From Warburgia ugandensis (lineage: Eukaryota; Streptophyta; Magnoliopsida; Canellales; Canellaceae), in NCBI GenBank assembly GCA_035236585.1, contig CP141127.1, forward strand, positions 46,142,001 through 46,206,000: a DNA stretch of 64,000 nucleotides, given 5' to 3'. Below the pieces are notes generated by a model. It saw only the letters and a list, made by a program, of their open reading frames with translations, was not told where the DNA came from and ran no database searches. Made by a program: the position numbers and the translations under genes. Shown one piece after another: positions 14,853 through 54,121 of this stretch. Within the stretch, counting starts at the first letter, position 1, and the number at the start of each line of letters is the position of its first letter.

Positions 14853-17436
14853 AAAGCTTGTTGTGATGTTTTAATTAACTCACAAGCAAACAAATTAGTT
14901 ATAGTAAATTCACTCAATGGAGGCTGATCCCATGAGGAATCAAACATATTGTTTGATTAGTGGGTCCTTCCTTAAACTACTTAATTTGGAGAAGACAATG
15001 AGATTTTGAACCTAAACTAAGAATAGTAACTTAACAAAAATGTAGAATATGGAAATATGTAAAGATGATAAAAACAAGCTAGACTTAGAAAGTTTCCTAA
15101 AAACATACTTTCTACAAATAAAACTTTCCTAATTATAAACTTTCTAACAATGAAAATTAATAACTTTCTAATCAAAGCATAATAGACTAATGGAATCAAT
15201 ATAAGAAAACACATAAGTAAGCAAGGAAATCAATAATCCACAATTCAAAAAATCATCATGAATAGTGCACATAGTTCATGATGAAAGAATAATGCAAGTT
15301 GCAACAATTGGAAACTAATGAGTAAATGCTTCTAATGCACCCAATAACACTTATCTAAATGTACATGTAATGACCTAGTATGCAAACATAATTAACTACT
15401 TAGCTAATGCACTACCCTTAGAATCATTTGCATGACTCATGGCCTATGTGTAAGTAGTCAAGGTGTGCTCTTTGATTCCTAAATGAAATGCATATAACAA
15501 CTAAGATACAATTCATGGAATATATAAAAACACAATAGAAATGTGTTGCTCAAAGAACCCTTACACATTAGCATGACTTGCTAAACTAGGTGACAACCTT
15601 CATAATCATGCACATGACTCCAAGGAGTGGTGGGCATGAAATTGAAGAGTGAGGTGTGTGAGAATAGACAATATAACTCCAAAATAAGTATGGATCATGG
15701 CATTAACCCGCAATGTAAACAAAGATTGAATCTATTGATATTCATAACATGAATCAAAACTAGCTTTTTTATTAAATGAAATGACAACACAAGCACAAGA
15801 GAACAATACAATTACGGATATGCACAACATCCTAAACCCAAAAACCCTTTTAAACCCCTTCAATCATCATCCAATATTTAAGGTAAGCATGCATTTGAAC
15901 CCTTGAAGGAGTACAAATGACTAACCACTAAAAAGAGTAGGAAAGAAAGCACCAAAATGAGATCTATAACAATGAAAGATTAAGGGAAAAAAGGGAATGG
16001 AAAAAATGGATTCAATATGAGTTATCCCTTGGCTATCACTTCAAGGGAAAGGAAACCTTAGATCTTTGAAAAAAGATGCAAGAAAACTTAACTAATGGAA
16101 GGCACATAAAGGAGATCTTAAGCATGAAAACAAGCATCAAAAGGAAATCAAAGCACGGAAAAAAAAATCAAAAGCTATAGGAATCTAACCCTTAATGGAA
16201 GAAAAACCAATGAACAAGTGCTAAAGAGGGAGGCATGGAACTCTTGGAAGAAATTGCTCAAAGGAGAAAAAAAATAGAAGGCAAGAGGAGAAAAGGTAAG
16301 ATGGGGGATGCCTCCTCTTTTGGAGTAGGCATTCCTCTTTTCCAAAGTTTCAACTTGTTACTTAAGTTTTTCTAGGGTAACATAAGTAAAAGGTAGGGTG
16401 GGAATAAGAAGAGAGAAGAGTGGATGGTTAGTATTTGAATATGGACGGCTACTTAGAGTTTATTAAAGAGGCAACATGGTGGAAGAATTGGTGGGAGAGA
16501 CCTTTTTGTTTTGGGTGGGGCGTCACCTCTCTTTCATGCATGCATTTCCTTAAAGATAGGATGAGGTGGCAGGTGAGATAGAAGAAGAAAAAGAGAGGAA
16601 ATTGAGAATGGAAAGAAAGATAGAGAGGTGGGTTAGAAGGTGTTAGAGGTGGAATGAAAAGATTGGACTCCTTGGACAACTAAGAGGAAGGAGGCTCCTA
16701 CATTGTGGGATCTAAGTGTGGATTTCCTTTGCCTAAGATATTTCAGGTGAAAAGGAGTTAGAAAGAGGGGGAAATGTGAGAAAAAGGTGAGGTAGATAAG
16801 CTAAGTGAGAGATGAAAACTTCTACTTTGTAGGAGTTGGGCATGGGATTTGCTCCCTATAGGGATTTCACATGGAATGCTTAAGAGGAATGGAAGGTGGA
16901 TGAAAATAGAGGGAAAAAGAGAGGAGATAAGAAGGAAGAGGAGAAATAGGAAGTGGGTTGATTGGTTGGCTAAGATGGGATTTAGAAAGGTGAATGGTAG
17001 CCTTTGGATCCAAATTGGATGGCGAATCATGGAACAACATCGGTGACATCAAGGAGGGGAGTGGGACACCAATTTCTAAGGAGATTGGTGTGAAACTCCC
17101 AACTCCATAGGTGTCTCATATGGAGTTCCTTGAGTGAGGTGGAGAATGAGAGAAAGTAAGAAAATAAGTAGAAAAGTTGGGAAATTAATATGACCTCTTC
17201 CTATTGGTCCACGTGGTACCTTATCCAATTAAAATTTCACTCAAATATCCTCTCATTATCTTCTTATTATCGCATGATATTTGCTTAGATTCTCCTCCAT
17301 TCATAGCTTTCAATGTAGCTTAGCTCAAGTGGCTTGATGGCTTGCTTAGAGAGCATATTTGGCTTGGCTTCATGGTAGCTTTGAGGTCTCTTTTGGCTTG
17401 GCTTGGTCACAAGACCCCCTTGGCTTTGATGGCTAG

Positions 17437-17441
17437 CTAGG
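17437..17441. repeat. Target-site duplication CTAGG (left) of solo LTR E
   Basis: CTAGG here and again at 29818-29822, immediately outside the TGTAATAAC... and ...GATGCTACA ends of E. Perfect 5-bp match. Confidence 0.85.
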
Positions 17442-20138
17442 TGTAATAACTGTAAATACATAATTCTGATAAGTAAATTCATACATTTACAAAAAAAAAT
17501 AGAGTAAAATTTTTTATTTAATTTTATTGATTAAGGGTGTGTTATAAAGGTAAAAATAAAGAATCGAATGAGAGTGTTAAGAAATTAGGTTAGTTTAAAA
17601 TGTCAAAATTGATTATTTAGTTAATTTGCATATTTAGAATCAAAGATTCCAAGGAAAAATGAAGATTTGATAATTACATTAAATTAACTTCAAAAGACTT
17701 TACAAAATAAATAAATTAATTAAAATATAAATTGATGCTAAATTAAGGAATGAGTGAGACCACTAGACATCATCCAAATCCTAGGATGAAATTCCAACTA
17801 ATTAGCTTAGAATTGTAAAATTTGTTAATTGCTTTCCAAGGTACAATTGCAAATATACCTTGGGCATGATATAAATGAAAACAAGTTAGTTAAATATAGG
17901 AGTTAATTGAATTTAAAATCCAAGTGGATCTAGGCCATCCATGTAGTGCAGTTGGACCCCATGCATCCCTCATTTTGCACTTGCATAAAAACTCAACCTA
18001 AGGATAAAATATACTTAAAAACTTAGACTGGAAAAAAAATAAAAAAGCCATTAATGAAGGGGGAGGGAACTAATGAGAGGATATGGGAAATTGTAGGAAG
18101 AAGGAGTAGGGAGGGAAGTCTAGGTGATGGAGAACTAGGAATTTAAAGGACGAAGTTGAGCTTCTATTGAGAGGAGCATTGAAGAAGAGGGAGTTGCAGA
18201 GAGTAAAGAAATAATGGTTAGCTAGAGGAAGAGGACAACCTACATAGAGAGTGGAGGGAGGCTAGCAGGGAAAATGACTCAGGTGAAAGAAAGGAGAGTG
18301 AAGAAAGATCACTGGGGTTTAACACCACTGTATGGGAAAGTGTTGAAGAGCCTCAGGCCAGTTGGAAAACTAGAGCCCTGCTTGAGTTGCATCTCCATGT
18401 AGTGAAGGAGGACGACGACAAACTCAGGAGAACTAGTCGGAAAACTCAATGATTCCACACTCTAAATAGGTCAAGGTTTTTCATGGGGTGATTTACTAAT
18501 GCAGTCTTGGATTAACTAAGTAGAAATTCGTGAATTTAGTTCAAATTGTGAAATAGTTTGCTTTCTTGTAGAATTAATCCGTACCATGTGTACTCCTGAA
18601 AGAGATCTTCTTTTTCTATCAAATCTTTGCTTGATGAATGAAGATTTTATATGACTCCTAGCTTGCATTGTGCATGTTCTATTTTAGTTTCTTGCATGCA
18701 TGATGAAATAAAGGATGAATCTCCTCAAGAAATAACATCCAAAAACTTAATAAAAAGAAAATCCAACTTATGGGTCTTACTCATAGATGATTGGACTTGA
18801 AAGTGGTGTGAAAAAAAAAACAAGGCAATATCTTTAATGGAAAAGTTGACTAAATCATCTAGCAAATAGTGATCAGGGACTGGGTGCTCCCTACATATCT
18901 AGACATACTTGTAGTGGGGTAGTGTCCATTCTCAACGTATAATTTGAATTTGAACTTCAATTTGTGGAATGTGAAACATGAGTTCTTTAGACTACATATC
19001 AATATTCATCTACATATCAATTTTCCCAAAATTGAGCTTTAAGCATTCATTAAAGGGCACTAAAAGGTAGGAAATAACATCAATTCCTGCACACGTGCAT
19101 GCAAGAAATGACACCATTGCCTACAATCTATTGGCTCACTATAGCTTGAATTGAAAATGGTAGTTAGATCTCCTCATTACCTTTAAGTTAATGAGATTCT
19201 TTCCCGAGGAATCTATGTGAAGTTAAAGTTTCAAAAATCAATGGCATCCATTCCTAGTTCACTATGAATAGGAAGTGTTGCCTTATGCTTTTGATTCGAT
19301 TTTGGATGTTCTAAATCTTTAAATATGTTGAGCTGATGGTAAACTATGAGAAATGCCAAAGATTTAGCAATGCAAGGCAGGGAATGGAATTGAACTTTCA
19401 ATGCCTGTACACACCCATGCTACTGGTATGGACATGTGAAGAAGATGACCAGACTAGAATTCTTGAGTCATTTGGAAATTCCAGTCCTAGGAATTCCTGT
19501 GTAAAAACTTTGCATAGTGTTGGAATTTGAGGAATTTAAGAATTCCTTAATAAAGAAAAATGTGAAAATCCATATATTTGTTTTTAATTTGACATGAAAA
19601 TTTTCTGATAGTTTATTTCACTAGATGTTGAGCACTGTAAGAACAAACTTTGAACTAAACAAAATGAGGGGTAAAATGGTAGATAGGCTAGAAGGTGAGA
19701 AATTACCAAATTACCCTTAGGTTATAATTTGAAGAATAAGTTAGTTCTATGAATGAAATTGCATATATTAACTCATCTAGGAACATCCACCTAAGACTTA
19801 CACTATAACCAAAGTCTCATAAGCCCTTGAAACATATAGCATTTCCTTAGGTCTTCTTTATTTAGGACTTGAAATGTTTCATAACCTAGCAACTAATGAC
19901 ATAGGGAATTACAACTTCATGTCATTGGAGAAAGTTAAGTACATCTTAGTTAAAGGAAATCCCTCCCTAAGATAAGACTATGATTTGACCATTTTACTTT
20001 TAGTCTTGTCAACCTATGGTCACTGAAATATAATTTTAAGTGACTAGCCGGCCTTAGTCTTTCCAAAACTCAAGAAACTCATCTTATAAATAGCTAGCAA
20101 TAGTCATCATTGTCATACCATCTTAGTATGTCAACATC

Positions 20139-20143
20139 TATGT
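20139..20143. repeat. Target-site duplication TATGT (left) of solo LTR G
   Basis: TATGT here and again at 27730-27734, directly outside the two ends of G. Perfect 5-bp match. Confidence 0.9.
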
Positions 20144-23100
20144 TGTGATGACCTGGGTTTTTGTAACACATTTTTCAAAGGCAGGGTCCTTAGTAGTAAA
20201 TTTTTTTTACAAAACAAAGCAGTGAAAATTCTTTTCTTTATAACTTGTTCTGAAAAACCCAAGTCATCACTTCATACCTAAAATAAGTAGAATTTTTGTA
20301 CAAGATAAAATTTCATTGAAGGAATATACTTTTATTAAATTCCAGAATTCATCTTGTGGTTCACAGTACAGCTTGGGTATCATTACAATACTTGTAAAAA
20401 TTACATAATCCAAATTTCAAGGCTCACCATATAATAAAAACTCTCAATACAATACAACACTCTCAAATAAAAATACATGTCTTCAAGGGGTATTCCTTAA
20501 TTGATTATTCTCCTAAGTCTTCTTTAGTCTTGAGCTCCTAACTCTCCTTCTATATCAAGATATTGTAAACATTAAAACATTTATAATATCTCAGCAACCT
20601 ATGCTTGGTAGGGGATTCAAGAAGCATAATAATTTGACAGTATAGTCCTAATACCTCATAATCCCTTTATTCATACTCATGGATCAATCTCTTTACTTGG
20701 TCATATATGTACCTCCTTACACATACATACTATATACTCTATATAGATATATACCTATGGTCAAAACTGTAAAAAATAGTTAATATCTCAAAACATAATC
20801 ATGCCCAGTTTATACTGAGTTGATAGATCATCCAGACTTTGCTAGACATACTCCCTTATTTGGGTAGTATCGGTAATTCACTATAACTAGGCATCTCATC
20901 ATGCCATATCATAAGGCATTTCACTATGCCATGCATCATAATGCAAAAATACTCAAAGGACTACTATGCATGCAGTCAGAATCCATACCAGCATGCCTGG
21001 ATGACTGCCCAATAATCCACCTATACCATCCTTGGTAGAAACCACAATATCCATGTCTGTATGGGGAGGACCATGGCTGTCACAGTGGCAGCCTTCCCAT
21101 AATTGTCCCACCTAACTTTTAGCCTCATTTAGGCTTGGTATCCATATAATAACAAGTTTTGGAGAGCAGGTGGCCAAACCCTACTAACTCTCCTATCATA
21201 GCATCCCTAGGCATATTCCTATTTAAAACAAAACTACAAGCCTCCATGCTTGTATGTAAAGTAATTCTTATACGTATCAGACAATTTGTCTGTTTACTTA
21301 GGGCTGGAATATCTTCTAGTTCCACATTCACTTAGAGTTTATTCCTTAATTCTAACTTAACATTTTCATATGTGTTTAGTTGGATCATAAGGGTTTCAGG
21401 GGATTTAATACAACTATTAACATTACACTTGTCAACATTTCTAGACATAAGATCATGTATTCAACATGTGCATCCCATGTAGATGCATTCATAAAATCCT
21501 CCTACCTTCAAGTAGTGATCCATCTCTTCAAACCTTCTATGATCTTGACTGACGTATGTAATATGTAAATACATATTGTCAATATTTATAAAATCTGAAT
21601 AATCCTATCTATATTCTTAGTCTAATCTTGTCCTTTGATATAAAGGATCTAGATCTTTTATCCTATCATGATCTATCTTCCTCAGATAGTGTCTATCCTA
21701 TTGATCAATAGATCTGATGGTTAGAATGATCTTCTAATCTTTCAGATCTAAGCATTTTCTATCCTAAGTCTTTATGTATTCCTTTCTTTGATCTTGATCT
21801 TTCATAGATTCTTTGATGAACAATTTATACTTGTTGACAGAGATCAAGAGCTTAGATCTTCTATCATCTGGTTCTTCTTTGATCTAAGTTTAGTTGTTTG
21901 ATCATCCCTAAGGAGGATGATCTTAGTTCTCTTCCTTGAATCATATTTGATCAAGGGTTTGGATTTTCTATCTAGATTTGTCTACAACATACATACGTAA
22001 TAAAATACAACATTAGGATTCTCATTGTTCTTAATCATTCAAGATCCTATGGATCTTATTTGATCATCCTTATCTTACTTACAGTTTTTATTAGGATTAG
22101 ATAATTTACTAACCATTTATGCTCTTATTATTATTATTCAACCAGTTAATGTTTTACTGGTTGAAGATAATTTATTTCAGTATAAGTCTAGAGTGCTCCT
22201 CTTATTTCCAATTGGCTAAGGCTTACTAGCTGAATGGTTTAACACAAAGTGGTTACTTCAATTCTCATGTAAGGAGGTGTTTAGACCTCACAAACATCAA
22301 TGGAAGGTAGGGAATTAGAGAACCCCCTTAACCACCATGCTAAGCATTCACTAGAGTGACCTTAGCTCAACCTTTCATAAGGTTCCTATGAGCATTTTAG
22401 CCCTAAGTACTCTTTCTAATTGATTTTAATTAAATCTATGAACATTTAAAATGTCATTCATGGGATTTATTATTCTCCTAGTTTGGTCCAAGGATTTGAT
22501 AATCCTTATACTATCCTATTGACTATAACCCTTACTAATATTAAGTCCAAGTCATTCACTCATCTTAATTTTCATGGATCTCTATATTTCATTAGATTTC
22601 ATTTTTGGTGATTTATAAATATTGAGACATAACTGCTAATTAAACAATTATATTTACTAACTTAAAGACAATTAATATGCTTATACTATACTTTGACAAT
22701 TCAAATAATTATACACTTTAAATCATAAGAGAATTGTACATTTATATCATTCTAAGCGCATTTATACTCTAATATACTAACATGGATCCTAAGTTATAAA
22801 ATACATGAAATTTTACTACTAATCTAATGGAATCATGCTTAAACTTTAAATTTAAACTAACAAGGCCCTAAGATAATTAAATCTATCAACCTAATAACAA
22901 ACTAATAACATTTAGAGAATAGCATGCTAAATTTTAAGAATTACACTATCATGCTTCCTAATTTATAACATAAATCACATTTACCATTATATTCTCAAAT
23001 AAAAGACAATTAAACTATCTAAATTCTTATTATTAGAAACTTTTACTTATGATCCAACCACTAGATCTTAGATCTTTTCCTTTAGATCAAGGGTTTTAAT

Positions 23101-23247
23101 CACATTTAGGTCTTTTACTCCATTAAGATCCAAAGATCATACCACTTGTTTTTGCCACATTTAATCCATGATTTCACTATATTCCATCATAGTCCCATTT
23201 GTTCAATCCATACTATGGGTCTGATCATGCTTGAACTCATTGATCAA

Positions 23248-23252
23248 GTGGG
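23248..23252. repeat. Target-site duplication GTGGG (left) of solo LTR H
   Basis: GTGGG here and again at 25946-25950, directly outside the TGT...ACA ends of H. Perfect 5-bp match. Confidence 0.9.
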
Positions 23253-25945
23253 TGTCACGACCCAGGTTTTCTCATGCATTTTTAAATGCAATACCTAATT
23301 TCCTAAGGCGGGATGCATCCCTATTTGAAAACCATTTTATAAAAACCATGCAATGCAGCGGAAAACCTTTAGTTTTAAACTCATTTTTGAAAACCCCGAG
23401 TGTCATTTGCTTTCACAACAACTAAGGTAGTTTTTGAAAAACTTCAGAAATCATAAATGTTTTTCCCCAGGTCTTTCCAGTCACAACGCACAGCCCAACT
23501 GTAACTAAGTACAAACACATGTCCAAAGGGTTGAGAGTTTACTTACATGTATATTTGTTTCCTTTTGGATTCAGTTGCTCATAGCACTAACATAGATGTC
23601 CTCTTTTTGTGAGTGGAGCTGTCCTGAACCATGATATATACGAACGTATCCTGTCCTTGAGTGCTTACTGATGTCTGAAAAATGTTAAGGATTGGGTGAG
23701 TATATAATATACTCAGTAGGAGCCTATCACTACTAGTTTTATAAATGCATGAGATGTTTTAAAATTATATGCTCATTCAAAATATGCATATGTTTGAATA
23801 CTCGAGTTCAATATCAGTATAAGAATCCATAATCAACTCAAATACTCATGACGTAAAAGATCACATAATCCAAAATTGAAAGTATCATATATATATGATG
23901 ACATCATGATATGCAATAGATGCTTCATGGAGTCCAACTCATGGACCTCTAGTATGGTATGGTCGACCAACCTCATATCATCCTATATGAAATGCACATA
24001 ACTCATCAAACCATAGGGTCCACTATGCCCACGACCTCCTCACCGTGTGGTCCACGGGTACCTGAGGACACTCGGTCATAGCCTCCACGGGGCCTATGAC
24101 ACGTCGACCTAGTGCTGTGACACCAGTGGTAGCCCCCTGTACTACATGCAGTCAATGTAGGGACTTGCCTCTTTTTGGGCGTGGTACCCATCTACCTATT
24201 AATGGTAGAGGCCGGGTGGCCAACCCAGACCCCTCGGCATAGCACCCACGGGCTTACTTGCCCAAATCACATAAGATTAAATAAACCAAAACCTCTTGTT
24301 AAAACTTGTCCTCTTTGGGTCCCTCACAACTGCCTGGCCCTCGGCACTCCAGCGTCTTTTGGCAACCCTCAAGGACATGCAATCTTTGCAAGTACTTAAA
24401 TCATGCAATGTATGCACTTATTCACAACACCTATATGTGCATAATGTATATGCAATCATTTCCAAAACATGGTTATGTACAAAGCATTTATCATGCATGC
24501 TGAATTAGGTCATGCAAATCAAGTCGTCTATTTAAAACATATGTTCTCAAAATAATAATGGTTCTTTTAAAAGAATCTAATAGTGATAGAGCACCTACCT
24601 GGCTAGGTCGCGCTAACCCTTTTGTCCTCGGACGCTCCTGATCATGGTTTGGGGAATCAAGGTTAGTTTGACCCATCTTTTATGGGTTTCAGAGTAGTTG
24701 GGTCTTATTACTTAGGCATTAAGGGTCCACCCCTATGCCTATGGGTGTCCTAAGGTCCTAATTTGGCCTTGGTATCCTCAGTTTTCCAACGTTCTAGTGG
24801 CCATGCGCAACCATCCTATTCTAAGGGTCATTCCTACCTTTTATTGGGCCTTGATTAGAGATTTTATAGTTTGGATGTGTCTGTGTCTTCGACACGGACA
24901 CAAGGCATTTTACTGCGTCTCAATCGGAGATCTAGATCTCAAGTTATAAGCATTTTAGTGTCCTATGTACATAGAGTCTTTAAAGACAAAAAGTGGGAAT
25001 GCTAGTGCGCTGCGCGTCAGCATCATGCGCCCTGGCTTCCTTAACAACCAAAATGATGCCTCTGCTAGTGCGCTGTGCATCTGTGGTGTGCGCCTCAACA
25101 GGCGCGTCTGCAGACACGCGCGACTTCTCCGCCCTTCTGTCCCTTTAGAGGGCGCGTCCCCGGACGTGCCCGTTGGTTTTCTTCCAACGCGTTCGACGCG
25201 TCACATTCCGTCCGGAACATCTGCGTCGACTGGGGGACTGGAGCATCCTCAGGACACCCTGGTTCAACCCTATTGAACCAGTGCGGCCCTGGGGATGTCC
25301 CAGGGTCCTTGGTGGCTCTCCCAAGCTCCGTTTTGCATGGTTTTTCATGCAAAAACTTAGGGGAATTGACCTTGGAACTATAGGGGAGATGGGTTTTGAG
25401 CGATCTCGGACGTACTTGGCTCGTTGTTGGGTTTTTCTCCTCATTTTCCCCTCTTGGTCACTGCTCCACGATGGGTTTTCTTCAAGGTTTTGGCCTGCCA
25501 TTAGAGGCACCCAAGACCTCTATTTGTAGGGCTTTTAAAGAGGGTTCTGAAGGGGTTCTAATCGCCTTTGAATGGCGGTGGAGAAACCTCCAGAATGGCG
25601 GTGGTTTCTCCTTGAAACACCGCCGTTCCAGAAACCTCTAGGAGGTTGAAGATGAAGGGTGCCCGTATCAAAACGGGCCCCTGTGTTTTGTCGCTAAACC
25701 CGTTTTTGTGAAAATTATAATTTTGCCCCTGAACTTCAAAGGGCCATAACTTGCTCATTTTAACTCCGTTTTGGGTGATTTTGGTCTCATTGGATTCCTT
25801 TTTTTGAGACGCATCTAATGGAGCTATTTTTAGGACCAAATTCCTAGGTTTAGTCAAGGTGACTAGTGAAATGACCAAAATGCCCTTATCTTTAAAATCG
25901 AACTTTTCATGGGCTTTTAATATTACAAAATTTGGAGTCATTACA
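23253..25945 (-). mobile_element. Solo LTR H, family 2 (2693 bp)
   Basis: It starts TGTCACGACCCAGG and ends GGAGTCATTACA, short imperfect inverted ends typical of LTRs, with a perfect GTGGG duplication inside solo LTR G. An inverted relative is present at 42510-45450, sharing both ends and long blocks near the PBS-side end (23253-23720 against 44990-45450 reversed). By analogy with family 1 the CCCAGG end is the PBS side, so it lies in minus orientation. Bases 25000-25520 are strikingly GC- and CpG-rich for this window and hold several overlapping open frames on both strands, which I regard as by-products of composition. Confidence 0.92.
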
Positions 25946-28260
25946 GTGGGTCCCTTTCTATATTTAGGGTTTTTCTACCATAAAGCGTAGATCCTTCAAT
26001 TTATCTTAGATCTATTCAAATAAATCATGGATATTACTTTATTTAAACATTATATCATCAATAAATTAGATCCCCATGATTTGATCATCTCAGATCTTGA
26101 AGATCATGAAAATTAGAAGCTTAATTCTTAAAAATAGAAAGTTTTTCGAATTATTTTATCAATATTATGGTTTCAGAAGAAAATAGATGTTACAAGCTTT
26201 CCATAGCTTCTTTCCAATCTCAATTTGGAGTTCACATGACTCCACAATTGAGGACTGGGTTCACAGTCATTCCTAGGGTCCAGATTTGATCTGGGCCCAG
26301 TGGAAGGGACCGCTGGGATCAGTCGGGCAACAGGTCTAGTCGGGCAGAACGATCACCTCACTCTTATCACCAGGACGCATGCAGTAATGAGCATCCTGGG
26401 ACTAGTGTTGTCACACGATCATTCCATCAGGATGGTGTCACACATGGAGACGCAGCTGTAGGGCGTCCTGCGGTGGCGTCCCCAGATTCTTACCCTTTAA
26501 AGAAGATCGGACCGTCCACTTTGGACCGTCCAATCAATTCTTCTTCAATTAAGGGCTAAAACCTTGATAAAAATTCTTGAAATTTCTACCATAGGGGTTT
26601 TGGACCCTTCTAGATCGATTGGATGGCTCATATTTTCCATCTGAGCCCTCTATCATCCAGAATTGAAGGGTTCTTACCCTTACTTGATTATTATTATTTT
26701 TAACCTAAACTTAATTTCAAAAAAATCAAAATTACATAAAATAACATGAAACAAGTGTGGAAAGGGTTTTCACCTACCTGATTGGAGGAAAACTTTAGCT
26801 TTTGCAGTATAAATTAAAAGAATACTGACTTGATGATAAGATAGCCCAAGAACCGCTTATCTTGTGATTTCTAGTTGATTGCACCGTTGGATCTTGAAAT
26901 TGATTTGGGGGCTTTATAGATAAGGTAGTCTAGGTCTTATGGATGGTGGGATTTGTGAGTTTGATTTGGAATAGAGTGCCAAATTGAATTTAGGTCTCTT
27001 GTTCCAATCTAGAGAGAGGAGAGAGAAAGTGAAAAAAGAGAGATTTTGGGGAGTTTTGAAAATTTGGAAAGGAATCTAGATTTGGTTTTAAAGGGTAAGC
27101 AAGCTGATTTCATGGAAATTTTAACAAAACATTTTTGGAGGATTTTTGGAGGTGTATTTATAGATGTTTTTGAATTTTTCATAATTACTTGTAATAATTA
27201 TGTTTCAATTCTTTTAAATATTAAATTAACATTGGATCCTCCACTACCACCTCCTTCTCCACTAGAATATGGTATTGGTTTGATCACTCATTGCATGTTT
27301 ACTGGCCGTTGGATTCATTTGTGGGTCCCACAGAGGTGTGAAAGGACCATTTTGCCCTTTTATGGAGAAAAATTCATTTTATTCTCCTGAACTCGGAATT
27401 GAACTTACTTAGTGTCGTGGGAATCATATTTATGCGTAAATTCTAAATATTTATGTCTTAGATCTCGATTATGGGTAAAATTACCATTTTACCCTTTTAT
27501 TCATAAAAATGAAGAAAATTAGGGATTTTTCATTTTAACTTGGAATTGAACATACTTAGTGTCATTTCGATCAGTTTTTTGAGCACATTCATAATTTATA
27601 AGTTTTAAATAATGTTTTAATCTCTATAAAAAGAGAATTTCCAATAAACTAATATTCCAGCCCAAAATTTCAAACAATTCAAACTAAATTGGTTTTCTCA
27701 ATCAATTTACAAAAATTGGGGTTATTACATATGTGACATTGAATAGAAGTTGGGTGAAAAATTAATTGTACCTCAAGTCCAAATACGAGTTAATTATCAT
27801 TAACAATCTCAAGAATGCACTAGTTGAGAGATAGTATTTAAACATGGTAAACTTATCTTCTAACAAACACTAAGAGAGTATTAATTAAGATATGAGAAAA
27901 TAATAACATGGAATAATACATAAGGACCATAAAGTTAGAGATGAAGTTAAAGACACACCTTCTCGTAACAAGGCATTTAGACCTTAACACCATGAAGAGG
28001 ACAACAACAACTAAAACGACTACGTAATAAGTTGAGAATGGAATTAACTAGGTAATTCATACTACCAGACATAGCATGGTAGTACATGACACTCCATCAA
28101 ATTCATGATTTAGAGATATCTATAATATGAACTGATGGGTTCACAAATTTGGCCAAGGGCCTGGAACATGGTTTTCATTGACATTTGGTGAGCATCACTC
28201 GAGTGGTGCTAAGCCATGAGATTTGGATTGTTTTATTAGCCACTAGTTTTGGACTTCATC

Positions 28261-40650: not shown

Positions 40651-40659
40651 GTTATTGTA

Positions 40660-42505: not shown

Positions 42506-42509
42506 TTAT

Positions 42510-45450
42510 TGTAATGACTCAAAAATTTTAAGCACTTTTGTATCACTTACCAACTATATGATTGTCATTTACTAAATTGATATAGATTATTTATTTTGAA
42601 AATCAATATATGTAATTAACTACAGTAAATGTTCTATTTTAATTAAAATATGAAATGAAATCATCTATAAACAATACATATATAATTAGATTCTACGTTC
42701 AAAATGGAATCCAACGGCTCAAAGAACACTGAAAACGGAGTTCGTATGACCAAGTTATGGGCTTTTGAAGATGAAGGGCATTTTTGTAAATTGAAATTAC
42801 AAAGCCCAAGGATGAAAAACACAGGGGGTCGTTTTACTAGCAACACCCCCTTCTTCCTTGTCACCTCCCTCTTCCAAGCGACGCCCTTGTACCACCTTTG
42901 CAGTGCAGTGCAGGAAAAATGGCAGCGCCGCCATGGGACGACACTGCCTCCCTCTTCTATAAATTTCCCCCATCTTCCCCTCCTCTCAACACCTCTTCTA
43001 CATTCTGAATCTCTTCTCTATGTGCTTCGTCATCTAGGGTTCTAGAAACACTGAGGAAGCACCAAAATCTTTGTCGCTCTCGCCCAGGTACCTTCCTTTT
43101 CTTCCCTCTTTTCCTCCTCTCTTTTTCTAGCATTTTCCCTACATCCCCACCAGATCTGGTCTCACAAGGCGACAAGTCGCAGGTGAAACCAGTACCAGTG
43201 GATCTGCCTCAGATCCACCACTTGGGCAACTTAGATGCGAGATCTAAACCACCCAACACATTCGTGGGATCCCCAAACCCTTGAAAACCTAGGACAATCC
43301 ACGTATTGGGACATCCTGGGCATTGATTTGGGGTTGGGAGGGTTGGATGGTCTAGATCGGGCCTCCCCATCCCAGTCAACCGTGATGTGTGTCCAAGATG
43401 CATGCGCATGATGTCATCTAGGACACACACCCCAGAGCGTCATTCGAGAGTGCGCGTACATATGAATGTGGTCTCGGTTCGACCAGGATGCACACGCGTC
43501 CTAGGAACCATGACGCGTGAGCCTAGTATGGATGAATATAGCTCATCCGTTGGTACACAACACTAAAAATGCAATCAAGGAGGCTATATAACTCCGATCG
43601 ATGATCTGAAAGAACCATTGCATTCATATTAATGAGATGGACCTAATGATACTATAAAAGTTAGGATTAGAGGACTATTTTATATGACTATAGCCTAAAA
43701 ACTATAGAAGTCTCATAGATCTACAATATCAAAGATGATCAAATCTCATGAATTGATCCATTAGAGATGTTAGGAGATTAAGAGCTCAAGATCAACCCTA
43801 AATTACATATATCCATCCTTGAATTATAGATCTGACAATTCAAATCAAGTACAGAGACCTGTGCTAAGCATCAGGACAAGTGATCTATGAGATCTAACCA
43901 TTAAACATTAGATATATATGTGAGTATAGCCTGGAAACGCATTAAGCAAGGATCTATGATCCTAAAAGGAAGATCTCGCCATTAATCTATAAATCTAATT
44001 AGTAATCTAGAAAGGATGGAAAATAATACTTGAATCCTTGTTATCAATTAATATCCAGGGTATGACAAAGGTGAGTTAGGGTCGAGTAATGAAGAATGCG
44101 ATTCAGGAGACATCGAGATAGGTAGTCTGATACTACTAAGTTTTCAAATGCATTCTAAACCCTAAGTGATTTACTTGACTTTATTATCGTATTCATATAT
44201 GCTTTTTGAGATATGATGTTCTTATACAAGCATGCGGAATTGTCTTTATGATTTATGGCTTTGAATACGATTACTAGCATGAACAGATTTTATGCATTGC
44301 TCACATGTTTTGAAAATAATTGCATAAATTTCCTGATTATGATGATTGAGATTTGGATTATTTATATATGCTTTTTGGGCTATTAAGCCTGGTGGGCATT
44401 ATGCTGAGAGGTTGTTTATGTACGGGGTTGGCCTCCTGGCCTCTACCACAAAAAGTGGATGGTATCGCTGCCAAAATGGCATTGTCCCTTCCTCGACTAT
44501 TGTGGTAAACAAGGACAACCACTGGAGGTGTTCACGGCACCCTTTTGGGGACATATCCATAGTCACCGTGGAGGCTATGGTAGGCTAGTCTCTAGGTACT
44601 AGACACACACGATTCTAGATGTGTTTTGGTCATGAGCATAGTTGGCCCTATGATTTTAGTGTTATCGATATGCATATAGCATTGAGATGGTCGTATATGA
44701 GTACTCGTGACCAGTTGGCATGATGTGTTCGCTGAGAGACCCATGTACATGATATCTGTAGTGATGCTATCATTTGCTTTGACAGATTACTATTTTAAGA
44801 ATTTCATGATTATAATTAGTTTATGATTCATTATATGATTTTTGTGATAGTTATATCATTGATTTCTAGATTTCGATAAAAGCTTTCATGATTGAAAATG
44901 TGCAAGCAAGCTTATGATCTGTGCATAAAAATGTATGTTTATACAAAAAGAAATTGCATGATGTTTCATATGGAAAGCCTCTTTGAAACCATGTATATTG
45001 CATGCCGTGTGTTCAAAATAGTAGTATCAAATCACCTACTGAGTATGAGGAATACTCACCCAAATATATTATTTTTACAGATTAGCTCCAAAAGGCTTAG
45101 AAGAAGTATCAGAAAAATGTTAGTACTATGCTCAAGAGAATGAAGAGAAGACAAGTATAAATGTAAGTATATGATCTACCTTTTGGGCATGTATCTGTAA
45201 TTGCTATAGTTGGACTACGAGCTATGACTGGATAGACCTAGGAAGACATTTATGATTACCATAATTTTCAAAACTACTTTGTTCATCTTGAAAGCAAATG
45301 GCACTTGGGGTTTTCAAAATGAATTTAAAATAAAAAGATTTTTCCACTGCATTGCATTGTTTTTATAAAATTGTTTTCGAATAAGGATCGATCCCGCATT
45401 AGGAATTAGTTTTGCATTTAAAAATGCATGTGAAAACCCAGGTGGTGACA
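42510..45450 (+). mobile_element. Solo LTR J, family 2 (2941 bp)
   Basis: It starts TGTAATGACTC and ends CCAGGTGGTGACA, the inverse of solo LTR H's ends, and shares long blocks with H in inverted orientation (for example 45290-45430 with 23275-23420). Flanking bases CTTAT (42505-42509) and CCTAT (45451-45455) agree at four of five positions, a plausible decayed duplication. A TATA-like CTATAAAT is at 42957-42964, in agreement with plus orientation. A GC-richer block follows at 43200-43560. Frames such as 42704-43045 are not conserved with H and are not called as genes. Confidence 0.85.
42957..42964 (+). promoter_or_regulatory. TATA-like box of solo LTR J
   Basis: CTATAAAT, placed about 450 bp after the LTR start and followed by a pyrimidine-rich stretch and then the GC-rich block, the usual layout for a promoter within this LTR type. 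The counterpart in H at 25520-25529 is less perfect (CTACAAATAG on the minus strand). Confidence 0.45.
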
Positions 45451-45455
45451 CCTAT

Positions 45456-46775
45456 TCAAGTGATTATCTATTTTCTTCATCACGACATCTATTCTATCAT
45501 ATCTATCGGACTAATCAGGAGTATGCCTTGTGTCTATTTCATAATTATTGTCATAAGGTATTTGCTTGGAGTAAAATAGTATGAAAGTGGTTTCCTATCC
45601 CCTTCTTGGTAGGTCATTGTACTAAAAACAAATCATTTTATATAATGAATGAGCACTTTCTCTCTTATTTATTTATTTTTATGTGAATTTAATGAAAAGC
45701 CTTAACTAAATGATGCATTCTAATTAAATGTGACTCCTAACTCTAGATTATGTACAATCAATCCCTAATAGTCCATTAATGAGCTAAGTTATTGATCTAT
45801 GATAATGTGTAGGGTCGTAGCTTTTAAACCTAAATCTAGACACATCTTTCTTTTATCCAAAATCAACTACTGCTTACTAGTTATGTTATGCTCTAAAGTG
45901 GATAATATGATTCTCATGGAAAGAGGCATTTAGGCATCAACAATAGTCAATGAAAGTGGTGACAATAGATCTCCTCCTTCTAAAAGGGTCCTACAAGCTC
46001 AAAGCCCTTAGTAGTTTGCTACTTGATTTTAAATTGAGCTTCAAGGGTTGGTATCATGAACATAAAGGAATTTGATTGATTTATCTAGGTGGGTCAAGGG
46101 TCTGGTGATAAAATCCAGTCCTTATATTAGGAGGGTCCTTGAGGGGTACTTACTATCAATGGGTTCCATCCACTATAAAGTAGTAAATGTGCAATGCAAT
46201 TACAAGGAATGGGAAACTAATGCTTACCTGTATGCTATCAAACCAAGGGTTAGACCTTTTTGGTGCATAACTAATGCAACAACCCTAATAAGATGCAACA
46301 ATTATAATGAATGACCCAAACAGTATGAATTACCCTACAAAACAATATGCAAACTACATTAAATGCTACTTTACTAGGAAAAAAAAGAATAAAGTGAGGG
46401 AAGCTTATAGTGGGGTTTTTGATGAAGATCAAGTGTAGGCCATCATACGCCACACTTCCCCTATATTAACAAAACCTATTTAAAAATTGAATAAATAAAT
46501 TGCAAGTTACAATGGGCCCTTAGTACAAGTTCACTAAAAAATGAAGAAAAAAACTAATTTAGAAAAGGAATAAATTTTGATGAAGCTTTGGGCCACAGGA
46601 TCACCATTGCTCCTTTGCCAAATTCCCCTCACACAAAACAAGTAAGTTATGTCAAATTTTTAGGAATTTAGCAAAAAATGCATGAATGATTCAAAAAATA
46701 TAGTTTAAGGCAACCTAAGACTATGAGTAAAGATAAACTATCCAAATAGATATCCAATCACAAGTATTTTATGAT
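45456..46775 (-). other. Element C 5' leader
   Basis: Non-coding leader collinear with 13600-14834 (A) and 50420-51497 (B): shared blocks include the TGATAAAATCCAGTCCTTAT region at 46100 and GATGAAGCTTTGGGCCACAGGATCACC at 46575. The small frames at 46072-46314 and 46271-46453 are incidental. Confidence 0.65.
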
Positions 46776-46793
46776 TCCTTGGAAACTATGCTA
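46776..46793 (-). promoter_or_regulatory. Primer binding site of element C (decayed tRNA-Asp type)
   Basis: The minus strand reads TAGCATAGTTTCCAAGGA against TGGCGCCGTTGCCGGGGA: decayed, but in the exact position, after the conserved AAGTTTT spacer that follows the LTR end. Confidence 0.6.
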
Positions 46794-46799
46794 AAAACT

Positions 46800-49440
46800 T
46801 GGTGTAACTATAATATTAATTGTAACCTCATCAATGAATCTAGTATTGAACCCAAGAGAGGTCGATCCCATGAGGAATCTCAGAGACTTATTTGTTTGAT
46901 AGATCTTATTTAAAGCACTTAACTTTAGTCGAAGAGAAAGACTGAATTAGATTTGAATTTAAACTAGGAAAGTAAATTACAAAACAAAGAAAATATGCAT
47001 GAAACTAGAAACTACACCAAGAGGAAACTTTCTAAAAATAAATACAATCAATGAAATTAGAAAATTTCCTAACTAGCATGCATTCAATAAAGGAACCTAA
47101 TGCAAAAATAGAATGAATTAAACCAAGAAACTTAACTTAATGAAACTTATTAAAAAGGAAACTTTCCTAATTCTAAAACTTTCTAAAAATAAAAATTTCT
47201 AAAACTTGAAAAGGAAACTTTCTAAAAATAAAAAAATACATAAAAAAATAACTAAACAAGTAATGCTAAACTAACATGAAACAAAAGAACAACAATCCAC
47301 TCAAAGGAAATTCCCCCAATTACCGCGTATATAACTCATGGAGTTGCGCACATGGTTCATGAGTGACAAATGGCCAAAAATCATGAATTAAAAACTAACT
47401 AACATGCAAAATAATCAAAGAACTCACTAAAGTAACTATAAAGCTAAATGGGTTCCTAAAATTTCAAGCAAATAAGTTGTATGGACTACTAGGCATTGCA
47501 CATAAAACATAAGATGAAAATTTCCAACAACATGGTCTATATGAAACTCAATTCAAGATATTGAAAGAAACTTAACAAGCATCTTTCAAGGAATACAACA
47601 CTCAAAGTTGAAAGTACTTCTCTACTATAATTAAACAAGGACCACGCTCTCGAAACAAATTCATTCATTGACTTAAAATTACATCCAACATTGGTGTACA
47701 TAGATAACAAGGTTGGAAATTATGCACTTTTATATGGCCTAGAACTATACTAGAAATAAGAATCAAATACACTCCAATGATTACAATCTAAACTCAAATA
47801 TCATCTATGTGAATTCAAGAGAGAAAATCAAAGAAAAAGATGGATAAAAGAAGCAAGGAACAAGGCAAAGAAATAAGGAAAACACGAGGAGATCAAAGTA
47901 AGGAACAAGAGAACTATGAGAGGGAAACAAAAGAGATTCAAGCTACTATTTCTCTTCACTGTCACTACCAGAGAAAAATTAAATTGGAACTTAAAAAATT
48001 GAGCCAGAAAAATAGGCAACTGAAAGCAAGATTTAAAGAAAGATAAGTTAGTTCTATGTGCTAATGTAAATGTAGAAGACAAAGAAACAAGGCAAGGAAT
48101 TAAAGGAAGCAACTAACATGGAACTGAAGTGAAAGAAACAAGGAAAGAAAGCTTGAAAATTTTCATGGAATGCCTCCAAAGAACAGAAGTAAAAGAGTCC
48201 TAGATCAACCTTGAATGAAACTAACCAAACCCTACTTGGAAAGAAAACATGGAATCCACAGAGTATTAATAGATGGCTGGGTTTCCAAATGAATGAAGCT
48301 TAATCTAATAGAGGAAATTAGATCTAGATCTAGAATTTTAATAAGGAAATTTAGGTGGATAGATAAGGTGGATTAATGAGGTAAGAAATGCTATCATCAT
48401 GGCTGGTTGCCATCTTTAGAAGGGAGAGGGCATCACCTTCTTAGGAAAGTGGCTTGGAGCTCCTTCCTTTCTAATTGCCTAGTATTTTGGTTGTTAGAGA
48501 GAGGAAAAAATACAAAGGAAAATGGTAGAAAATATTGCAAAGTATCTAGGGTTTTGAAGAGTTTTGATTTGAAGTAGATCTAGGGCTTTTCTTACTAGGA
48601 AGCCACTTAAGATGCCAACCGAGCAAGGAGGTGTTACCTTCTTAAGGAGCTCCCTCCTTAAGCCAAAAATGTGGAAAACCTAGTTAGGTGGGTGGAAAGG
48701 ATAGAAAATGGAAAGAAAAAAGTAGCAATTCACTCTTGATTGGTTCACCTATGTATGAGCATCTTACCTTTTACAAATATCTATCAAAACCTTCCAATTG
48801 TCCATTAAAAAGGACACTTTTTAGCTAGGATAATTGCTTGAAATAGCCCTCCAATTGTACCACTCCATGTGGCATGGCTCCCATTTGGCTTGATGACTCA
48901 GTCCTTGATCACTTGAGTGACTATTTCCTTTGGCTTCAAAGCTTGAATGGCATGGCTTCCTTATGCTTCCTAGTTAGATCAGGAAACATCATTTATGGCT
49001 CCAATTCTCACACAAAGTGGTGGAATTGTACAGCTTTTTACATGGATCATTTTAATTACCTTTGATGCTTCCCATTGCCTTATTTTGCTAGCCTTAGGAT
49101 GATCTTATTCTTTGATTTAGCTTTGGAATGATAACATTTAGACTTTTGACTCAATCCTTTAATCTTGATCTTTAATTCTCATTGTGATCAATCTCGTCTA
49201 GTGTATCACCTTCTCAACACCTACAAATGATGAAAAATCCTAATTAAATCCTATTAAATTATGAAAATTCACATACTTATTTTATATTAGCTTCTAAATT
49301 TTTGAATTAGCAAAATTTTGAATTATTAGGTTAGAAATACATACGTTATGAAATTTCAGAAAAAAACCCTAAAATAACTCTATAATTTATAACACAGGCT
49401 ACTAATTGGGTACTTTTTATGCAAAATTGAACATTTATCA
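46800..49440 (-). repeat. Element C 5' LTR
   Basis: It is a copy of 37594-40166: left end TGGTGTAAC, right end (minus strand) TGATAAATGTTCAAT, collinear throughout, for example 47800-48110 with 38580-38880. The outer end is followed by the ACAAG duplication and the resumed gag of element B. The 94-codon minus frame at 47828-48112 corresponds to 38620-38823 and is hydrophobic low-complexity, not a gene. Confidence 0.88.
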
Positions 49441-49445
49441 ACAAG

Positions 49446-50160
49446 TTGTAGTTAAATGTGCTAGGCTATAACAAATAGTAGAAACCTCTTATGGAGGTTT
49501 CATGGAGGCGCTTCTGGCCACGAAGGCATCAAATTTTCAATCAATTTTCTAGAACATATTTTCTACCTTGTCCAATCGTTCTACCACGGAGTTAAATTTA
49601 TAAGACATATCTATAGTCACTCCTATTTCATACATGCCTCCGTTCTTTTGGGTCTAGGTATTTCTCTCCCTCCTATTAGAATAATACCATTGCTAAGAAT
49701 TTTGAACTATTATTTGGAAAAACTCCTAGGCTTCTATCTCATTTTTCAACATAAGGGCCACTCCACTTACTACATCAACCATCTATCTATTTTGAGGTGT
49801 AAGTGCCTCATAGAAGTAATGAACTTGCTGCCATTTTTCCAAATTGTCATGGGGACACTTTTGTAGTGATTCATTCCATCCTTCCTAACATTCATATTAT
49901 TACTCATCTTCTCTTAGCTGAAAAATGATAATCTCCTTACAAAGGGCATTGGTCTTATGGATGAGGAAGAATTTGTTTAGAAACATTTTAGACAACTAAT
50001 CCCATGTAGTAATGGATCTGACCTCTAAAGAATTTAGCAATGATTTGGCCTTATCTTTCAATGAGAAAGGGAACAACCTAAATTTCATAAAATCATCTAA
50101 AGCATTTCGGAATCTGAATGAAGCATAAACGCCAAGGAACCCTTGATACCTAGGAATGAA

Positions 50161-50192
<32 letters not shown>

Positions 50193-50400
50193 AGACCATA
50201 AAATGTTGGGAGTAACTGTATGACTCCAGGTTTAAGTTTAAAGTGGTCTAAATTGGTTGGTGGTAATGTAGTGAATGAGGGGTGTATAGAAATGTCTTAT
50301 GGCCTTATGCTCAACTACAACTTGTGTGTCTGCCATGGGGTTAGGAATTTGATTTCTAACCCCTTGCCTATGAGTTCATTCAATCTCAAGATCTATTGGT
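49446..50400 (-). pseudogene. Element B gag, N-terminal part (interrupted by element C)
   Basis: It resumes exactly where the gag stopped at 37588. It is collinear with 12680-13560 of element A: blocks around AAACCTC(T/C)T(A/C)TGGAGG (49480), the CATACATGCCTCC block (49630), the CATTTTGAGGTGTAAGTGCCTCATAGAAGT block (49790), and the segment encoding the AKSLLNSL-type and FLNKFF-type gag motifs at about 50090-49940. No long open frame remains. A (CT)14 microsatellite at 50165-50192 has grown inside the coding part. Confidence 0.7.
50165..50192. repeat. (CT)14 microsatellite inside decayed gag
   Basis: Perfect CT dinucleotide run of 28 bases. Element A has only CTCTCTTTC at the matching place (about 13360), so the expansion is specific to this copy. 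Confidence 0.9.
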
Positions 50401-50419
50401 ACTAACTTAGTGTTTTGAG

Positions 50420-51497
50420 ATTAACAACCTTGCTGCACTATAATAAAAAACCAATCTAAATGATGCAATCTAACTCTAAATGACTCCTAACTCTATATGA
50501 TGCACAATCAACCCTAATCGTTCACTATCAAGCTATTTAATAATCTTTGTTAATCTATAGTAGCTTTTAGACCTAGATTTAGATAGCTCTTCCTTTAGTC
50601 TAGACTCTATTATTGCTTTCTAATTTGGTCCTACCCAAGGTGGTTAATACAATTCTCATGGAAGGAGGCATTTAGAATTCAACAATTGTCAACAAAAGGC
50701 ATGGAAAAATCACTAGGATTTTGGATACCTACTATAACCACGATGCTTAAAAGCCACTGGAGTGATAATAGATCTCCTCCCAAAAGGGTCATACAAGCTT
50801 AAAACCCTAACCTTTTAAGCACTGGGATTGCCAGCATAAAAGGAATTGATTTGATTACTTCAGTGGACCAAGGATTTGGCGATGAAATCTAGTCCTTAAC
50901 AATCAATGTATTCCATCTACCATAAAGCAATAAATGTGTAATGCAATTACATGGAAAGGAAACTAATCCCTACCTATATGTTATCTAACAAAGTAAACGT
51001 TGTGAAATAGGTACAATCTAATGCAACAACCCTAAATAAGATGCAACAAGTATAATGAATGGCATAAAACTATATGAACAAACTACACTAAATGCAACTA
51101 CACTTAGAAAATAAAGAGAATGACAAAAGCATACAATGGGGTTTTTGATAAAGATCAAGTGTGGGCCACAAACTTGGCCTATATTATTACAACCCATTTA
51201 AAATGAGATAAACTATTTCAAATTACAATGGGGCCTCACTACAAGTTTTCTCAAAAGTAGAAAAAATTTAATCTAGGAAAGCAAGGAAATCCTAATTAAG
51301 TTGATGAGCTTTGGCCCATAGGATCACCACCGCTCCTTTTCCCAAATTCCCCTTGCACAAAACAAAGAAAAATGGTCAATTTGTTAGGAATTAGCAAAAT
51401 ATACAGATATGACACAAAAACACAAATGTAATGGAACATAACACTAAGACTAGAGATAAATAACCTAAATAAAGATCCTACTAGAAATTCATTATGA
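50420..51497 (-). other. Element B 5' leader
   Basis: Non-coding leader collinear with the leaders of A and C, with the shared GATCAAGTGTGGGCCAC block at about 51155 and the GATGAGCTTTGGCCCATAGGATCACC block at 51302. The 70-codon minus frame at 51296-51508 crosses leader and PBS and is not a gene. Confidence 0.65.
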
Positions 51498-51516
51498 TCA
51501 CCTAACAATGGTGCCC
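51498..51516 (-). promoter_or_regulatory. Primer binding site of element B, tRNA-Asp type
   Basis: The minus strand reads GGGCACCATTGTTAGGTGA, related to TGGCGCCGTTGCCGGGGA with several changes. It lies after the AAGTTTT spacer that adjoins the LTR end TACACCA. Confidence 0.65.
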
Positions 51517-51522
51517 AAAACT

Positions 51523-54121
51523 TGGTGTATTTTTAAAATTACTCGAAAGTGCATAGATAAAAGTAGTAATAACATGTAGGAGAGATTGATCTCATGAAGA
51601 ATCTCACAATTTTCAATTGGTTGGATCTTATTTAAGTTGCTTATTTTAGCCAAAGAAAATAGTTTTGATTAAACTAGGAATTTAAACAACATAGAATGGT
51701 ACACATGCATAAAATTAGAAACATCAACTAAAGGAAACTTTAAAAAATAAAATTTTTAAATTGAAATAAAAAATTTCCTAATTAACATGCATTCAATATA
51801 AAAAGCTAAGGCAAAATCAAAATGAATGAATCTAGAAAACTTTTACCTGAGGAAACTTGTTAAAAATGAAAATTTCCTAAGCTAGCACTTTCCTAAACCT
51901 AAAACTTTCTAAAACTAAATTACAAATTTCCTAAAACAAATCTAAGATAGATCCAAGTAACTACTAAAATCTAAACTTAACCTAAGCAAAGAATCAACCA
52001 ACAACTTAGAGATGAACTTCAATCACCATTCACATGACCATGAAAGTGTGGGTATGGTTCATAGAGTGAAAGATGGAAAGAAATTATGAACTAAAAGCTA
52101 AGTAACATGCAAAGTAATGAAACAACTCAATGAACTAAATAAAAAGATATATGGGTTCCTACAATTTCAAACAAACAAAGTGTATGGGCTGTTAGATGTT
52201 ACACATAAAACATGAGACGAAAAATTCCGACGAGATGTTGTATATGAAACTCAAATCAATTAAGGCATGGAAAGAAAATTAGTCAAGAAATTTTTGTGAA
52301 ATTTAGCACTCAATAGTTGAAGTACTTTACTGTTATAATTAGTTAGTGAAAATTCTCATCATACTAGTTTATTCATTGAGTTGAAATTACAAAAAATAAA
52401 GGGTGGTGCACATGTACATAGAGAACAAGGCGAAAAATTGTGCACTCTACTTAAGCGACATCTCAACATCAAATCAATAATTAAACATACTCCAACAATC
52501 CCAATCTAAACTTAGATATCAAGCATGTGAACTCAAGAGAGAAAATCAAAGAAAACGATGTAGGAAAGAAGTAAAGAACAAGCAAATAGACAAGGGAAAA
52601 ATAAGATGATCAAAGCAAGAAATAAGAGAATATTAAAAGGGAAACAAATGAAATTCAAGCTACTATTTCTCTTGGCTGTCACTAACATGGAAAAGATAAC
52701 TTGTATCTTGAAGAATTAAGTAAGAGAAACAAGAGAAATAGAAGTAAGAGTGAAAGGAGAACAAAGAGGAACTATGTGTGGGAAATTTAAGAAACAAAGA
52801 AAGCAATGAACAAGCATTGAAAGCAAGGAACTAAAGCAGGATACCAACCTAGAACTGAAGTTAAAAACCAAAGAAATAAATCAAGGGAAAGGTTGTGGAA
52901 GACAAGGAAAGGCAGCCAAGGTGTTGAACTCCAAAACGCTAAGAGATCTCCAAGTTGATGTGCTTGATTTCAAGGAGTCAGAAGCATCCCCTCTAACTTC
53001 AATTAGGCATGGAATTCCTTGGGTATATATAGTGTTTTGGGTTTCCAATATGCTAAGATTCTATCATAGGAAGAAGAAGGAGAATTAGATCTCAAACTGA
53101 AGGTAGGAAAGTTTTGTGGTGATTGGAGATAGAAGACTAGAAGGTTAGATGAGTGAACTTTCTAATTAAAAGTACAGGAAATGTGGTTGGGGGAGGCATG
53201 GGTGGGACTTGAATTTCAACCTAGGATGAGTAATGGAATCCATTTCCTTAAGGTATATCACATTTTGGGATGGAAAAGAAGTGGGAAAAGGTAAGAATGA
53301 CGAAAGAAAGAGATAGGTTGGTAAAGTACTTGAAGGAGGAATGGATTTAGAAGGAGGTGGGGGGTGAAGTGGGGGAAGAGAGGAAAAAAAAAAAAAGAAT
53401 TTAGACTTGACCTCTCTCTTGATTGGTCCACTTATGCTTGCATATCTTACTGTGTTAATTATCACTCAAATTCCTTTCTAATTATCCCTTGAAATTCATT
53501 ATTTAGGATGGATTGCTTGGCTCCTTGAGACATGGCTCTTTTGTGGCTTGGTGGCTCACTTTGATGGCTTAATTCTTGATGGTGTGAGTGGCTAAATCAT
53601 TTAGCTTTAAGGCTTGAATATCTTGGCATTCTTAGCTTTTTTTTTTCTTTTTTTTTTTTTAGACTTTGAACTTCATGAATGGCTCCAGCTCTGATTCATT
53701 GGTGGCGGAATCGCATGACTATTTGCATGGACCTATTTTACTCACCATAGATGCTTCCAATTGTTTCCTTGAATTCATTTAATTCCCTTAAGATTATCTT
53801 AATGCTTGATTTACCTTTGGAATGTTGAAATTTAGGTCTTTGGCCCTCTTTTGATCTTGATTTTCAATTCTTATTTTAGTTGATCTTGGCCATTGGATCA
53901 CCTTCTCAACACCTACAAAGAATAAAATCCTAGATAATTATGATTATTCACATACTTAGTATGGATCAGCTTCTAAATATACAAAACATCAAATTTTTTG
54001 AATTATTAGGTTAGAAATGCGTGTTATGAAATTCTAGAAAAAAACATAGAATCATGCCTATAATTTATAACACATGGACTAATAATTTGGTACTTTTTTA
54101 TGCACAATTGAACACTTACCA
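51523..54121 (-). mobile_element. Element B 5' LTR
   Basis: It runs from TGGTGTAT beside the PBS to the right end that reads TGGTAAGTGTTCAAT on the minus strand, 2599 bp. Its right half matches the 30313-31628 fragment, the other LTR of B. A TATATATAG box lies at 53024-53032, also present at 30461-30469 in the fragment. It is also related to the LTRs of A and C over the outer few hundred bases. Confidence 0.85.

What the first reader, a model, noticed from the sequence alone, without database searches (positions are those of the whole stretch)
14859..54121. Five-deep nest of LTR elements: B > A > E > G > H
Element A's outer LTR end abuts the interior of B's 3' LTR (30312/30313). A's LTR is split by E with duplication CTAGG (17437-17441, 29818-29822). 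E is split by G with TATGT (20139-20143, 27730-27734). G is split by H with GTGGG (23248-23252, 25946-25950). Three successive perfect 5-bp duplications give an unambiguous order of insertion across at least three families. Nesting is common in plants; five levels with three cleanly readable duplications within 25 kb is a good calibration locus.
Basis: seen in the sequence. Interest (0 to 1): 0.7.

Follow-up and report, generated by a model that had tools for sequence, protein, structure and literature searches.

The report
Stack of old nested plant retrotransposons

Summary
In detail: all three 5-bp duplications are present and perfect, and homologous copies in the window support the order B > A > E > G > H, most weakly at E > G and B > A. 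The interpretation needs four corrections.

(1) E, G and H are not whole elements. Each has TG...CA ends but no detectable second LTR, and no Pfam match in the 9 of 16 open frames searched. They read as solo LTRs of about 4.8, 4.9 and 2.7 kb.

(2) Duplications alone prove little: TGT...ACA ends with matching 5-mers occur 295 times in the window against 309 expected. Homologous copies carry the argument.

(3) The stack branches: B also holds a two-LTR element at 37594-49440 (duplication ACAAG), itself holding an H-like solo LTR (42510-45450).

(4) B > A rests on one junction; the other side lies outside the window.

B is Ty3/gypsy (RNase H, integrase traces); A is its relative. G-type LTRs have a tRNA-Met-type primer site, as most chromoviruses do. 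LTR divergence (B 0.275, inner element 0.219) agrees with the order. E, G and H have no LTR pair to date, which weakens the calibration claim. Wheat 3B reaches 8 layers (PMC4290129): ordinary.

The parts
51523..54121 (-). B, 5' LTR (2599 bp)
   Evidence: LTR alignment and boundaries; grouped with 30313-31628 in the tree
30313..31628 (-). B, truncated 3' LTR; broken at 30313, homologous to 52873
   Evidence: K2P 0.275 to 52873-54121
31629..37593 (-). B, interior, first part; integrase trace (33895-34179) and RNase H traces (34749-35137) in Ty3/gypsy order
   Evidence: Pfam rve 8.7e-08, RT_RNaseH 2e-10 and RT_RNaseH_2 5.3e-05, the last below its cut-off
49446..51522 (-). B, interior, second part
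   Evidence: collinear with A's interior across the 37594-49440 insertion
6744..14858 (-). A, interior; matches to B's interior begin at 7870, the left limit is inferred from the G-type LTR that ends at 6738
   Evidence: 8328-12655 matches 33364-37570 and 12957-14001 matches 49762-50799
14859..17441 (-). A, 5' LTR, inner part, up to and including CTAGG
29823..30312 (-). A, 5' LTR, outer part; outer end at 30312
17437..17441 (.). target-site duplication CTAGG, left (E in A)
29818..29822 (.). target-site duplication CTAGG, right (E in A)
17442..29817 (+). E, putative solo LTR (4785 bp without G); strand tentative
   Evidence: TGT...ACA ends, no terminal direct repeat, no Pfam match in the 3 of 3 listed frames lying inside E, no copy in the window
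20139..20143 (.). target-site duplication TATGT, left (G in E)
27730..27734 (.). target-site duplication TATGT, right (G in E)
20144..27729 (-). G, solo LTR (4888 bp without H)
   Evidence: blocks from near both ends match the 5' LTR at 1778-6738 (20159 and 27729), and the left end matches the LTR at 62722 onward; no terminal direct repeat
23248..23252 (.). target-site duplication GTGGG, left (H in G)
25946..25950 (.). target-site duplication GTGGG, right (H in G)
23253..25945 (-). H, putative solo LTR (2693 bp); strand by likeness of its ends to G
   Evidence: alignment to 45450-42510 begins and ends exactly at H's ends; no terminal direct repeat
37594..49440 (-). second branch in B: two-LTR element (LTRs 37594-40165 and 46800-49440, K2P 0.219) with duplication ACAAG (37589-37593 / 49441-49445)
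42510..45450 (+). H-like solo LTR inside 37594-49440, opposite strand to H; imperfect duplication CTTAT / CCTAT

Best explanation
This is an old stack of LTR retrotransposons in a plant-type genome. A minus-strand Ty3/gypsy element, probably of the Athila/Tat kind (B), received a related one (A) in its 3' LTR. A's 5' LTR then received E, E received G, and G received H. E, G and H were later reduced, most likely by recombination between their own two LTRs, to solo LTRs, leaving their 5-bp target duplications intact. In parallel B's interior received another two-LTR element, which itself received an H-like element now also a solo LTR. Shown: the boundaries, the duplications, the lack of detectable second LTRs, collinearity of split hosts with homologous copies (A across E; B's interior across 37594-49440; G across H at the level of interval length). 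Inferred: recombination as the cause of the solo LTRs, the far side of A, E's family, the Athila/Tat label.
For: Three perfect duplications at TGT...ACA ends. E in A: the LTR at 55694-58374 (reverse strand) runs through the site, A's left flank reaching 56186 and its right flank starting at 56179; A's joined flanks score 698 against it (null 235 +/- 17, 20 resamplings) and 539-562 against three other LTRs (nulls 234-242). H in G: between the matched blocks G has 1340 bp without H and the copy has 1266 bp (from the coordinates). H's ends are the ends of its alignment to 42510-45450; score 1249 against 512-575 in 8 resamplings. Solo state: Smith-Waterman of first against last 1200 bp is 43 for E (null 32 +/- 4, maximum of 30 also 43), 34 for G (34 +/- 4) and 26 for H (27 +/- 3), against 1449 for a true LTR pair. 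B's two LTRs are split from three other copies with support 100 over about 1.3 kb, A not included. K2P is 0.275 +/- 0.018 for B's pair and 0.219 +/- 0.011 for the element inside it. CpG observed/expected rises with nesting: A/B 0.12-0.17, E 0.20, G 0.23, H 0.61, though families differ.
Against: E has no copy in the window, so its two halves are tied together only by the TATGT duplication and by G's ends. Close to H (within about 250 bp left and 450 bp right) G and its copy do not align significantly (z 0.2 and 2.0). B > A is seen on one side only. Over the last 490 bp alone, B's two LTRs group with support of only 58, and the truncated one is nearer to the LTR at 37594-40165 (K2P 0.265) than to its supposed partner (0.322). 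H and 42510-45450 are alike mainly at their ends; a full MAFFT alignment gives 53% identity. A 2-mismatch match to the tRNA-Met primer 12-mer lies inside H at 24114; at that stringency chance matches are expected.
Confidence: 0.88

Rival explanations
1. E, G and H are complete small or non-autonomous LTR elements (LARD or TRIM type) with LTRs too short or too decayed to be detected, so the stack is of whole elements.
For: TG...CA ends and 5-bp duplications fit any LTR element; E's end-against-end score equals the maximum of 30 resamplings.
Against: No terminal repeat in G or H; G corresponds to an LTR that lies next to a tRNA-Met-type primer site at 1778-6738, so G is an LTR and nothing more.
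Confidence: 0.07
2. The A/B junction is a deletion or recombination breakpoint rather than an insertion of A into B's 3' LTR, so the true stack is four deep plus a neighbour.
For: Only one side of A is in the window; no duplication can be checked there; A's end lacks the usual CA; over the last 490 bp the pairing of B's LTRs is weak.
Against: The break falls exactly at the outer end of A's LTR as defined by homologous ends, while the LTR that follows is cut in its middle.
Confidence: 0.1
3. The stack is an assembly artefact of repeated sequence.
For: The parts are repeats; I had no reads to test it.
Against: Misjoins do not create matching 5-mers at element ends, nor flanks that run on in homologous copies.
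Confidence: 0.02

Closest known systems
Nested LTR retrotransposon clusters of plants (wheat 3B, PMC4290129; maize 22 Mb, PMC2773423)
   Same: Elements inserted into each other, oldest at the base (passages seen); wheat 3B stacks reach 8 layers (passages seen)
   Different: Here the inner three levels all look like solo LTRs and the LTR pairs are strongly diverged; both are differences of degree
Athila/Tat (OTA) clade of Ty3/gypsy (A, B and the element at 37594-49440)
   Same: LTRs of about 2.6-3.1 kb; B has RNase H and integrase in Ty3/gypsy order; A has a decayed tRNA-Asp-like primer site (pattern recalled)
   Different: Too decayed to place in a named lineage; no domain tree was made; the primer sites of B and 37594-49440 did not pass the scan
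Chromovirus clade of Ty3/gypsy, perhaps Tekay/Del (G, possibly H)
   Same: tRNA-Met-type primer site next to the G-type LTRs; long LTRs
   Different: No integrase or chromodomain seen; the lineage name is an inference from memory

Membership tests
Solo LTR (E, G, H) | TG...CA ends with a 5-bp target duplication | tested here: met
Solo LTR (E, G, H) | no second LTR within the insertion | tested here: met
   E is borderline (equals the maximum of 30 resamplings) but far from the positive control
Solo LTR (E, G, H) | no coding domain | tested here: met
   9 of the 16 open frames of 70 aa or more in these insertions scanned with Pfam, 0 matches; 7 frames, all in H, were not scanned
Solo LTR (E, G, H) | whole length equals the LTR of a full element of the family | tested here: inconclusive
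   met for G (LTR 1778-6738 beside a primer site); H only against another solo copy; E has no copy in the window
Athila/Tat (A, B, 37594-49440) | primer site of a tRNA other than Met (tRNA-Asp type) | tested here: inconclusive
   recalled 18-mer, up to 6 mismatches: 6 matches in the window; one is A's (14835, 6 mismatches), one belongs to the + strand relative (58371, 5), one lies at 60525 (4), three lie elsewhere; B and 37594-49440 did not pass and look alike only by eye
Athila/Tat (A, B, 37594-49440) | Ty3/gypsy domain order (RNase H before integrase) | tested here: met
   B only: minus strand, 35137-34749 RNase H, then 34179-33895 integrase
Athila/Tat (A, B, 37594-49440) | placement in a reverse-transcriptase / RNase H / integrase tree | not tested
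   domains are fragments
Chromovirus (G) | tRNA-Met primer site (in most chromoviruses, not in non-chromoviruses; PMC6317226, passages seen) | tested here: met
   recalled 12-mer, up to 2 mismatches: 3 matches; the two with one mismatch (1764, 62708) lie beside the two G-type LTRs, the third (24114, two mismatches) lies inside H. The same site is also used by most Ty1/copia groups, so alone it does not prove Ty3/gypsy
Chromovirus (G) | chromodomain at the end of integrase | not testable with these tools
   G is an LTR only; the interiors of its relatives run off the window or are cut

The most novel reading that the evidence does not exclude
E is not an LTR at all but a large non-coding mobile element with TG...CA ends and 5-bp duplications, mobilised by an LTR-element integrase.
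Probability: 0.04. Interest if true: 0.4.

Novelty: new member of a known kind. Interest (0 to 1): 0.15.

Why it matters
It is a checked example of insertion order read from sequence, with homologous copies in the same window serving as empty sites. It also shows a trap: a 5-bp duplication next to TGT...ACA is found about 300 times by chance in such a window, so homology has to fix the ends first. As a dating locus it is limited, because the three youngest levels have lost one LTR each.

Tried and rejected
Free search for TGT...ACA with matching 5-mers as evidence: rejected, 295 found against 309 expected. Shared termini of E with G and H as a family link: rejected for E (z -0.1 to 2.3); the 3' ends of G and H are alike (z 5.9), their 5' ends weakly (z 2.0). 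Rfam and tRNA searches: nothing. Exact scans of viral contigs for one end each of E and G: 0 matches each. CpG depletion as an independent clock: not relied on, since H and the H-like copy are both high (0.61, 0.55), which looks like a family property. Age in years: not claimed, since species and rate are unknown (one search gives 8-69 million years over three assumed rates). I made no test of assembly quality beyond the sequence itself.

Full report
What was checked. The A/B junction is also as described: A's LTR ends at 30312 at the position where other LTR copies end (31628, 40165, 49440, 54121), and 30313 onward matches B's other LTR from 52873.

Is it more than chance? Not from the duplications alone: 295 TGT...ACA pairs with matching 5-mers lie 2-13 kb apart in the window, and 309 +/- 23 are expected from 20 resamplings. 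What makes it convincing is that homologous copies fix the ends. For G, matched blocks reach 20159 and 27729 against the LTR at 1778-6738, and 20144 against the LTR that starts at 62722. For H, an alignment to 42510-45450 starts and stops at H's own ends. With ends fixed, a 5-mer match has probability 0.0018. For E the site is bounded by the homologous LTR at 55694-58374, which runs straight through it; 20 of 4000 random window pairs of the same size gave a match.

What the levels are. B is a minus-strand Ty3/gypsy element: 5' LTR 51523-54121, interior 31629-37593 plus 49446-51522, 3' LTR cut at 30313. It keeps an integrase trace (Pfam rve 8.7e-08, 32.8 bits against a cut-off of 32.6) and RNase H traces (2e-10, and 5.3e-05 below its cut-off). 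Of the other 27 of 30 frames scanned, 25 had no match and 2 had matches at E 0.06, below cut-off. A is a relative, with its 5' LTR at 14859-30312 around E. E, G and H look like single LTRs: no terminal repeat, no Pfam match in 9 of the 16 open frames of 70 aa or more. The two G-type LTRs seen with an interior stand next to a tRNA-Met-type primer site, which among plant Ty3/gypsy elements points to chromoviruses but is also used by most Ty1/copia groups (PMC6317226, passages seen). The Athila/Tat label of A and B is weaker: of 6 matches to the recalled tRNA-Asp-type pattern, one is A's and one its + strand relative's, while B's and that of 37594-49440 did not pass.

A second branch. B also holds a two-LTR element at 37594-49440 with duplication ACAAG. 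A's interior, collinear with B's, lacks it and shows the uninterrupted site (joined flanks z 25.7; each side alone z 18.1 and 13.0). That element holds an H-like solo LTR at 42510-45450 with an imperfect duplication CTTAT / CCTAT.

Time order. B's LTR pair differs by K2P 0.275 +/- 0.018 and the inner element's by 0.219 +/- 0.011, in line with the nesting. In the tree of five copies over about 1.3 kb B's two LTRs are separated from the rest with support 100; over the last 490 bp (six copies, A included) their support is 58, and the truncated LTR is nearer to 37594-40165 (0.265) than to its partner (0.322). In one survey about a quarter of nested elements show more LTR divergence than their hosts (PMC7251063, abstract and passages seen), so the divergence order is a consistency check only. 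E, G and H cannot be dated this way.

Weak points. G in E rests on the duplication and on G's ends alone, as E has no copy in the window. Next to H, G and its copy do not align significantly; the support there is that the interval without H is 1340 bp in G and 1266 bp in the copy, and that the joined wider flanks score 689 against 413 +/- 26. The far side of A is outside the window. The species is unknown; that it is a plant is inferred from the element types.

Comparison. Nested stacks are common in large plant genomes (PMC2773423, passages seen); wheat chromosome 3B has up to 8 layers (PMC4290129, passages seen), and solo LTRs inserted into complete elements were annotated at the maize adh1 locus (PMC2672092, passages seen). 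The finding is real, well read and ordinary.

Noticed in passing
1-6738 and 61299-64000: Two further G-type elements on the minus strand: 5' LTRs 1778-6738 and 62722-64000 (cut by the window), each with a tRNA-Met-type primer site; an open frame at 61302-61766 looks gag-like by position (recalled resemblance, no Pfam match).
   Followed up: partly
55694-60985: A + strand relative of A (LTR 55694-58374, primer-like site at 58371) followed by a second tRNA-Asp-like site at 60525, perhaps another LTR of about 2 kb inserted behind the first.
   Followed up: no
7215-7787 and 40213-40630: Tandem arrays that also match themselves in reverse, at the 3' side of the A and 37594-49440 interiors; alike in position, with no match to each other.
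   Followed up: no
23253-25945: H is richer in G+C (0.438) and CpG (o/e 0.61) than the other pieces measured (G+C 0.31-0.38, CpG 0.12-0.30), except the H-like copy at 42510-45450, which shares the high CpG (0.55).
   Followed up: partly
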